In this document: positions 11,660 to 13,015 of the stretch, piece after piece
Position numbering within the stretch: position 1 is the stretch's first letter
Layout: each line of letters begins with the position of its first letter
Assembly: GCA_021802645.1 (NCBI GenBank)
Contig: JAJZRO010000002.1
Span: 4,257-68,256 of the forward strand
Length of the DNA: 64,000 bases
Source of the DNA: Deltaproteobacteria bacterium
Lineage (GTDB): Bacteria; Desulfobacterota; Desulfobulbia; Desulfobulbales; Desulfurivibrionaceae
Reading direction: 5' to 3'
The notes under the pieces: model-generated
The model's database searches: none
What the model saw: only the letters and a program-made list of their open reading frames with translations
What the model was told of the DNA's origin: nothing
Translations under genes and position numbers: made by a program

Positions 11660-12649
11660 TCAGCCTGGGCCAGCGCTCAGGTGCTGAAGATAGGCGCCGA
11701 GATTTTTGAAGCTGCAACCGTAGCTCGGAACCGGCTCGCTTTTGCCCTTGACCGTAAAGCGGTAGGGGGTGAAGTAGGGAGGCAAGTCGGTAAGGTGGGC
11801 GGCGGCCTCCTCGCCCATGATGAGGTCGAGTCCCTCTTGGGCGCTGGTCTGGGCTTCGAGCCGGAAGGCAACGTTGACCACGTCACCGACCACGGTGAAG
11901 TCGCGTTTGCCGTTGACACCGATATTGCCGAGCATGGCCTTGCCGGTGTTGAGTGCCGCGCCGATCCGCAGTGGCCAGGGGAGTTCCGGCACGTTTTTTT
12001 TCAGGCCATAGGTGAAGGCGGCAATGGCGAGCGCGGTGCGGAGCGCCTGGTGGATCGCGTGGGTCGGCCCTCCCGCCCCGGCCCAGAGGGCCATGACCGC
12101 GTCGCCGATGAACTTGTCCACCATGCCTTCGTGGCGGGTGACGATCTGGCTCACCCCGGCGGTCCAGGACTGGAGCAGGGCGGAGACCTTGTGGTCGCCC
12201 AGGCGTTCGGAAAGCGTGGTATAGTCATGGATGTCGCAGATGAGGATGGTGACCGTCTCCTGCTCGACAAAGGCCACGGTGCGGTCTTCCGGTGCGCCAT
12301 AGACCGTGGCGCTGGCCGATTTTTCCTCGCCGACCTGGCGAAAGAGCAGCGCCGTCTTGCCGATGGTGATGCGGTCGTCGGGGTGGAGGTGGGTGGGGGT
12401 CAGGACACGGCGGCCATTGATCATGGTGCCGTTGGCGCTGCCGAGATCAATGAGGTTGTGGCGGCCGTTCATTTCCACCTGGATCATGGCGTGTTTGCGC
12501 GAGACCCAGGAAAAGGGAAGCAGGATGTCGTTGCCCTTTTCCCGGCCGATGGTGTAAGTGGCCTCGGCATTGAGTTGCCACTCCTGCTGGGGGGCAGCGG
12601 CGCTGTCCAGCAGGACGAGGGTGGCGGTGGAGCCGGCCGGTTGCGCCAT
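11660..12649 (-). CDS. FHA domain - class III adenylate/guanylate cyclase
   Basis: 329 aa, cytoplasmic, no membrane segment. An FHA domain covers about residues 25-110 (YTIGREKGNDI, WVSRKHAMI, LGSANGTMING), which binds phosphothreonine peptides. A class III cyclase domain covers about 130-315. The metal-binding aspartates lie in LICDIHDYTTLS and KFIGDAVMALW, and the transition-state Asn and Arg in VVNVAFRLEA, so it should be catalytically active. ATP versus GTP preference cannot be settled by eye. It starts two bases after the stop of the selenoprotein gene and is followed by the EIIA gene. AAGG lies about 11 bases upstream of the ATG. Confidence 0.88.
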   Translation of the reverse strand: MAQPAGSTATLVLLDSAAAPQQEWQLNAEATYTIGREKGNDILLPFSWVSRKHAMIQVEMNGRHNLIDLGSANGTMINGRRVLTPTHLHPDDRITIGKTALLFRQVGEEKSASATVYGAPEDRTVAFVEQETVTILICDIHDYTTLSERLGDHKVSALLQSWTAGVSQIVTRHEGMVDKFIGDAVMALWAGAGGPTHAIHQALRTALAIAAFTYGLKKNVPELPWPLRIGAALNTGKAMLGNIGVNGKRDFTVVGDVVNVAFRLEAQTSAQEGLDLIMGEEAAAHLTDLPPYFTPYRFTVKGKSEPVPSYGCSFKNLGAYLQHLSAGPG

Positions 12650-12651
12650 TG

Positions 12652-12873
12652 CTATCGCGCCTTGAGCAGCCCGATTATTTCATCGGGTTCCGGGAAGCGT
12701 TTTTCCTGGTGCTTGGAGAAAAGCAACCTGCCATCCACGCTGATGTCGTAGATGCCGCCACTGCCGGCGATCAGCTCTACGGCGGCCTTGAATTCCTTTT
12801 TGATCGCGTCCTCCAGCCTGGAGGCACGGGGCAGATAATTTCACTGGGTGCAGTAGGTAATAGTGACCTTCAT
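12652..12873 (-). CDS. SelW-like selenoprotein (Rdx family), in-frame UGA encodes selenocysteine
   Basis: 73 aa when the TGA at 12841-12843 is read as selenocysteine. The start is MKVTITYCTQ, then Sec11, then NYLPRASRLEDAI. This gives the C-x-x-U redox motif (C8, U11) at the end of the first beta strand, as in the thioredoxin-like Rdx family (SelW, SelT, SelH). The C-terminal half has the family pattern: GIYDISVDGRLLFSKHQEKR and FPEPDEII. AGGAG lies eight bases before the ATG, and the frame runs on after the TGA to TAG. A hairpin starts 12 bases after the UGA. The gene is two bases upstream of the cyclase gene. Selenoproteins of this family are thought to be thiol redox proteins; the partner is unknown. 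Confidence 0.9.
12805..12828 (-). promoter_or_regulatory. SECIS-like hairpin downstream of the UGA codon
   Basis: On the minus strand, CGTG plus CCTCCA pair with TGGAGG plus CGCG around a GGC loop, leaving one bulged A. It begins 12 bases after the UGA, inside the coding region, where bacterial SECIS elements recruit SelB. Confidence 0.65.
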
Positions 12874-13015
12874 GGAAATCTCCTTGCGCTTGTCGATCGT
12901 TCCGGGGACATTGCAGGCAGTGGCGGGCGCGCCCATCGCACTGTTCGTCTCACTATACCAGAAAGAGTCGAGCGGGCGCCAGCGGTTGGTGGCTGCTTTT
13001 TAAGGAAAGGATGGA

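What the first reader, a model, noticed from the sequence alone, without database searches (positions are those of the whole stretch)
12652..12873. SelW-like selenoprotein hidden by an in-frame UGA
Sequence: a ribosome binding site, an ATG and a 73-codon frame interrupted once by TGA at codon 11. Reading the TGA as Sec gives a C-x-x-U motif at the right place for the Rdx family (SelW, SelT, SelH), and the sequence on both sides of the TGA fits that family. A hairpin starts 12 bases after the TGA, as bacterial SECIS elements do. Standard gene callers would miss or truncate this gene. It implies that the organism encodes SelA, SelB, SelC and SelD.
Basis: partly seen in the sequence, partly recalled or inferred. 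Interest (0 to 1): 0.72.

Follow-up and report, generated by a model that had tools for sequence, protein, structure and literature searches.

The report
SelW-like bacterial selenoprotein gene
This is a real but ordinary bacterial gene for a small redox protein that contains selenocysteine (the 21st amino acid) at a codon normally read as stop; the same gene is widespread in related bacteria and its kind has been known since about 2005.

Summary
On the minus strand (12873→12652) a Shine-Dalgarno sequence, an ATG and 73 codons with one UGA at codon 11 encode a CxxU protein. It passes the curated cut-offs of Pfam Rdx and two NCBIfam SelT/W/H models, and folds (AlphaFold2, pLDDT 91.7) like solved SelW-related proteins (TM 0.92). 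The same genome (99.4% complete) holds selA, selB, tRNA-Sec with anticodon UCA, and selD; SelD and a formate dehydrogenase carry single in-frame UGAs themselves. In 119 homologous places the codon is UGA 112 times, Cys 7 times, nothing else. The hairpin begins exactly 12 nt after the UGA; its 6-bp core pairs in 96.7% of cells over 95 UGA homologues, with strong compensatory change, and the seven Cys homologues lack it. So it is a genuine SECIS-decoded selenoprotein of a family (SelW-like) already described in Deltaproteobacteria, including Desulfotalea. New only in detail: two amino acids change together as if dragged by a SECIS base pair, and in most of the family the gene sits 2-22 nt upstream of an FHA-nucleotide-cyclase gene. 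Interest is low: a new member of a known kind.

The parts
12652..12873 (-). SelW-like selenoprotein gene, 73 codons + TAG, read through one UGA
   Evidence: Translation; Pfam Rdx 4.6e-21; NF041051 96.4 bits over cut-off 88 and TIGR02174 60.4 over 34.2; AF2 model and Foldseek
12880..12885 (-). Shine-Dalgarno sequence AAGGAG, 6 nt before the ATG
   Evidence: Read directly; the same AAGGAGATTTCC-ATG stands in the sister genome (L112/L052)
12841..12843 (-). In-frame UGA, codon 11, read as selenocysteine (CTQU motif)
   Evidence: Aligned codon is UGA in 112 and Cys in 7 of 119 homologous places
12850..12852 (-). Cys codon (TGC, residue 8) of the CxxU redox motif
   Evidence: C8 and residue 11 are invariant in 62 aligned homologues
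12805..12828 (-). Bacterial SECIS hairpin: 10 bp with one bulged A, loop GGC; the 6-bp core (12824-12819 with 12815-12810) is the conserved part
   Evidence: Folds; covariation 0.420 against 0.177 in shuffles and at most 0.139 when slid; synonymous-codon shuffles; absent from Cys homologues
11660..12649 (-). Next gene, FHA domain + class III nucleotide cyclase, starting 2 nt after the selW stop; probably co-transcribed
   Evidence: Pfam FHA 1.7e-19 and Guanylate_cyc 2.4e-11; the pair is kept in relatives with gaps mostly 2-22 nt

Best explanation
A SelW-like (Rdx family) selenoprotein gene. Ribosomes translate from the ATG at 12873. At UGA codon 11, SelB carrying Sec-tRNA(UCA) binds the hairpin that begins 12 nt downstream and inserts selenocysteine in place of termination, giving a 73-residue thioredoxin-like protein with a C-x-x-U redox pair in the loop between the first strand and the first helix. 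Shown here by computation: frame, family, fold, SECIS covariation, machinery, other UGA genes. Inferred: actual Sec insertion, redox activity through a selenenylsulfide, and co-transcription with the FHA-cyclase gene. Substrate and physiological role are not known for bacterial SelW-like proteins; the most likely role is thiol or peroxide redox chemistry in the cytoplasm.
For: Rdx/SelTWH profiles over their curated cut-offs. AF2 pLDDT 91.7, with TM 0.92 and 1.0 A rmsd to the SelW-related structure 2fa8, and mouse SelW 2npb also matched. selB 346 bits over 242, selA 636 over 268, tRNA-Sec 72.7 bits over 47 with anticodon UCA, selD 379.5 over 125 with one in-frame UGA, FdhA 1548 bits with one in-frame UGA plus two partial FdhA-like matches with a UGA. 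UGA or Cys only at the codon in 119 places. SECIS core pairs in 96.7% of cells with 79 compensatory cells against 26.8 shuffled. The seven Cys homologues keep only 1-3 of the 6 pairs, UGA homologues 5-6. In the genus labelled g26 all five genomes lack both selA and Rdx.
Against: No expression, mass-spectrometry or selenium-labelling data. No Rfam family matches the hairpin even at a loose threshold. Some genomes with a UGA-type Rdx show no selA hit (e.g. G016, 93% complete), probably through incomplete assemblies.
Confidence: 0.97

Rival explanations
1. The UGA is a true stop: the frame beyond it is a pseudogene, or the product is a 10-residue peptide.
For: By table 11 the frame stops at codon 11, and a standard gene finder would see it so.
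Against: Sequence on both sides is conserved over many genera and phyla with the UGA itself kept; the RNA hairpin is conserved by compensatory change; complete Sec machinery is present.
Confidence: 0.01
2. The UGA is a sequencing error or recent mutation of a Cys codon (TGT/TGC).
For: Cys homologues exist (7 of 119 places).
Against: The same UGA is found in independently assembled genomes, including the sister genome at 89% identity, and only the UGA forms carry the hairpin.
Confidence: 0.005
3. UGA is reassigned genome-wide (for example to Trp or Gly) and no Sec is involved.
For: None.
Against: Seven of the SelW-like homologues have Cys, none Trp or Gly, at this codon; a UCA-anticodon tRNA of Sec type, selA, selB and selD are present. 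A scan of the window for other UGA-interrupted, motif-bearing frames lying largely outside other large frames gave no other convincing candidate (my reading of the list).
Confidence: 0.005
4. It is a selenoprotein of the Rdx family but orthologous to SelT or SelH rather than SelW.
For: The NCBIfam models that match cover SelT/SelW/SelH together.
Against: The short single-domain protein with no N-terminal extension matches SelW-named structures best.
Confidence: 0.05

Closest known systems
Bacterial SelW-like selenoprotein family (PMC1088965, 2005; PMC1794560, 2006)
   Same: CxxU motif, in-frame UGA, bacterial SECIS with a G in a small apical loop just downstream. PMC1794560 lists SelW-like among the selenoproteins of Desulfotalea psychrophila and Geobacter sulfurreducens, and states that SelW-like has few or no Cys homologues in Sec-containing organisms.
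   Different: A different species. In this lineage the gene is followed directly by an FHA-cyclase gene, which I found in no paper searched.
SelW of Epsilonproteobacteria (PMC4607533; NCBIfam NF041051 SelTWH_Campy)
   Same: Best NCBIfam equivalog, over its cut-off. The paper reports a common 5/6-bp apical hairpin and SelW genes missed entirely by annotation, just as here.
   Different: Different phylum.
SelW-related bacterial proteins of solved structure (2fa8, 2obk, 2oka, 2ojl, 3dex, 2p0g)
   Same: Fold (TM 0.91-0.94, about 1 A).
   Different: About 27-35% identity. That these proteins use CxxC rather than CxxU is from general knowledge; I did not read their sequences here.
Mouse selenoprotein W (2npb)
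   Same: Rdx fold; CxxU motif (general knowledge).
   Different: Only 22% identity; eukaryotic SECIS lies in the 3' UTR, not in the coding region (general knowledge).

Membership tests
Rdx (SelT/SelW/SelH) family | Match to the curated family profile above its cut-off | tested here: met
   PF10262 75.3 bits over 22.6; TIGR02174 60.4 over 34.2 and NF041051 96.4 over 88
Rdx (SelT/SelW/SelH) family | CxxU or CxxC between strand 1 and helix 1 | tested here: met
   C8-T-Q-U11; strand 2-8 and helix 14-28 in the model; C8 and residue 11 invariant in 62 homologues
Rdx (SelT/SelW/SelH) family | Thioredoxin-like Rdx fold | tested here: met
   Foldseek best matches are SelW-related structures, TM 0.91-0.94
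SelW subfamily proper | Orthology to SelW rather than SelT or SelH | tested here: inconclusive
   Nearest named structures are SelW-related, but no family-wide tree with eukaryotic members was built
Bacterial selenoproteins | In-frame UGA at a position that is Sec or Cys in homologues | tested here: met
   UGA 112, Cys 7, other 0
Bacterial selenoproteins | SECIS hairpin just downstream of the UGA with a G in a small apical loop | tested here: met
   Hairpin 12828-12805, loop GGC; core conserved by covariation. bSECISearch itself was not run; no Rfam match
Bacterial selenoproteins | selA, selB, selC and selD in the genome | tested here: met
Bacterial selenoproteins | Selenium present in the purified protein | not testable with these tools
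   Needs 75Se labelling or mass spectrometry

The most novel reading that the evidence does not exclude
The SelW-like selenoprotein and the FHA-cyclase encoded 2 nt downstream form a conserved redox-to-cyclic-nucleotide signalling module of this family, in which the selenoprotein senses the redox or selenium state and modulates the cyclase. In addition, the SECIS hairpin dictates two amino acids of the protein, since S18/E21 change together with the U-A to G-C base pair.
Probability: 0.12. Interest if true: 0.5.

Novelty: new member of a known kind. Interest (0 to 1): 0.2.

Why it matters
It confirms that raw-sequence reading can pick up a selenoprotein gene that table-11 gene callers truncate, and adds a carefully checked member of the SelW-like family in a Sec-using Desulfobulbales-like bacterium (the lineage is an inference). 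The 95-sequence SECIS alignment is a usable model of how an RNA signal inside a coding region constrains the protein: its base pair 22-32 is kept by paired non-synonymous changes. The selW-cyclase gene pair gives a testable lead on what SelW-like proteins do in bacteria, which is still unclear.

Tried and rejected
Translation of the plus strand at the stated coordinates: no meaningful frame; the gene is on the minus strand. Rfam at the gathering threshold over the window, and at a loose threshold over the hairpin: nothing, so the SECIS case rests on comparative evidence. phmmer against the PDB put pentatricopeptide repeats first, but each single repeat is not significant (about 4 bits each, summed over repeats); rejected as an artefact of repeat summation. 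Scan of the window for other UGA-interrupted frames with Sec-like motifs: only this gene was convincing by eye; I did not run the other candidates through profiles. A longer lower stem of the hairpin (10 bp with bulge) is seen in this genome but is not conserved (its four outer pairs are unpaired in 43-74 of 95 sequences). No paper was found that joins selenoprotein, adenylate cyclase and FHA domain.

Full report
What is there. On the minus strand of the window, 12873 to 12652, stand an AAGGAG Shine-Dalgarno sequence (12885-12880), an ATG 6 nt later, 73 codons with a single UGA at codon 11 (12843-12841), and a TAG. Read with UGA as selenocysteine it gives MKVTITYCTQUNYLPRASRLEDAIKKEFKAAVELIAGSGGIYDISVDGRLLFSKHQEKRFPEPDEIIGLLKAR.

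Family and fold. The protein scores 75.3 bits on Pfam Rdx (cut-off 22.6), 96.4 bits on NCBIfam NF041051 SelTWH_Campy (cut-off 88) and 60.4 on TIGR02174 CXXU_selWTH (cut-off 34.2). It is the only Rdx match in its genome, with exactly one TGA inside. An AlphaFold2 model on 62 homologues has pLDDT 91.7. Foldseek against the PDB returns SelW-related structures first (2fa8, TM 0.92, 1.0 A), then MIEN1 and mouse SelW, then thioredoxins at much weaker scores. C8 and position 11 are invariant in those 62.

Machinery. The same 2.55-Mb genome, 99.4% complete, carries selB, selA, one strong tRNA-Sec with anticodon UCA and selD. selD has one in-frame UGA of its own (the frame reads AKAAG-UGA-AAK). The best formate dehydrogenase alpha subunit (1548 bits) has one too, and two further partial FdhA-like matches also contain one. 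So the organism evidently uses UGA as Sec in several genes.

Comparative evidence at the codon. A search of the 258 genomes of the same order found Rdx in 199; every one of the listed matches has exactly one TGA. A phylum sample and a further class add more UGA forms and a few Cys forms. On the loci fetched, the aligned codon is UGA 112 times and TGT/TGC 7 times, never anything else. These 119 include a few near-identical sequences. In the order, selA is found in 215 of 258 genomes. The genus labelled g26 lacks both selA and Rdx in all five genomes; the genus labelled g21 has selA in most members but no Rdx in those listed.

The SECIS element. The 24-nt hairpin at 12828-12805 starts after 12 unpaired bases, has 10 bp with one bulged A, and a GGC loop (or AGGCU if the closing A-U is open). 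By dinucleotide shuffling of this one sequence it is unremarkable (z -1.35). The better tests are comparative. Synonymous-codon shuffles that keep the protein give p about 0.01 for this gene and mean z -1.34 over 79 homologues, against -0.04 for control stretches of the same genes. In an ungapped alignment of 95 distinct UGA homologues the 6-bp core pairs in 96.7% of cells against 82.8% in shuffles, and the covariation score is 0.420 against 0.177 in shuffles and at most 0.139 when the partner is slid. The outer stem is not conserved. The seven Cys homologues keep only 1-3 of the six pairs, the UGA homologues 5-6. Relatedness inflates the shuffle statistics somewhat; the slid controls and the Cys comparison do not share that weakness, though seven Cys sequences from two groups are few.

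An aside with some interest. Pair 22-32 of the alignment joins the first base of the Ser18 codon with the middle base of the Glu21 codon. In the UGA homologues Ser/Glu (U-A) is replaced by Ala/Ala, Val/Ala or Val/Thr (G-C), with rarer mismatched Thr/Ala and Ser/Ala forms. On a tree built without these residues the U-A label needs 5 changes (at least 2 forced by well-supported branches), and one double change separates the well-supported sisters L029 (Ser/Glu) and L026 (Ala/Ala). The tree is poorly resolved overall. The simplest reading is that the RNA signal drags two amino acids; a protein-level coupling between neighbouring helix residues is not excluded.

Neighbourhood. The gene ends 2 nt before the start of an FHA + class III nucleotide cyclase gene (11660-12649 minus). 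The pair, in the same order and orientation, recurs in the sister genome and in most loci of the same family with gaps mostly of 2-22 nt, and in two more distant bacteria (L057, gap 22; L053, gap 170), but not in the genus labelled g3. A divergent YgiQ-type radical SAM gene lies on the other side. Co-transcription is likely; a functional link is a guess.

What is known. SelW-like was the most abundant selenoprotein family in the Sargasso Sea data, with 48 genes, CxxU and bacterial SECIS (PMC1088965). PMC1794560 lists it among the selenoproteins of Desulfotalea psychrophila and Geobacter sulfurreducens and notes that Cys forms are few in Sec-containing organisms. PMC4607533 reports SelW genes missed by annotation and a common 5/6-bp apical hairpin in Epsilonproteobacteria. 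The finding is therefore a correct, well-supported new member of a known kind.

Noticed in passing
window 11660-12649 (-) with 12652-12873 (-): selW-like gene directly followed (2 nt) by an FHA + nucleotide-cyclase gene; the pair is conserved in most loci of the family (gaps mostly 2-22 nt) but not in the genus labelled g3.
   Followed up: partly
window 12811-12822 (-), SECIS pair 22-32 of alignment A2: Ser18/Glu21 change together to Ala/Ala, Val/Ala or Val/Thr, so that the SECIS pair goes from U-A to G-C: apparent RNA-driven amino-acid covariation.
   Followed up: partly
G521:C17:222572-222784 (-) and 227006-227227 (+) (L113); G454:C2:68991-69212 (-) (L116) and 73434-73646 (+): In another class of the phylum, a UGA-type and a Cys-type Rdx gene lie about 4.4 kb apart in the same genome, possibly a duplication with a Sec/Cys split or an insertion.
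   Followed up: no
L082 (G366:C32:38644-38853): A UGA-type SelW homologue with an extra in-frame TAG just after the SECIS: a decaying gene or an assembly error.
   Followed up: no
G000:C25:64338-65063 and G000:C22:173618-174346 (L142, L143): Two partial formate-dehydrogenase-like matches with an in-frame TGA besides the main Sec-type FdhA at C37: further probable selenoproteins of this genome.
   Followed up: no
genus labelled g21 (G034-G057): A whole genus keeps selA in most members but shows no Rdx gene in the genomes listed: a lineage-specific loss of SelW.
   Followed up: no
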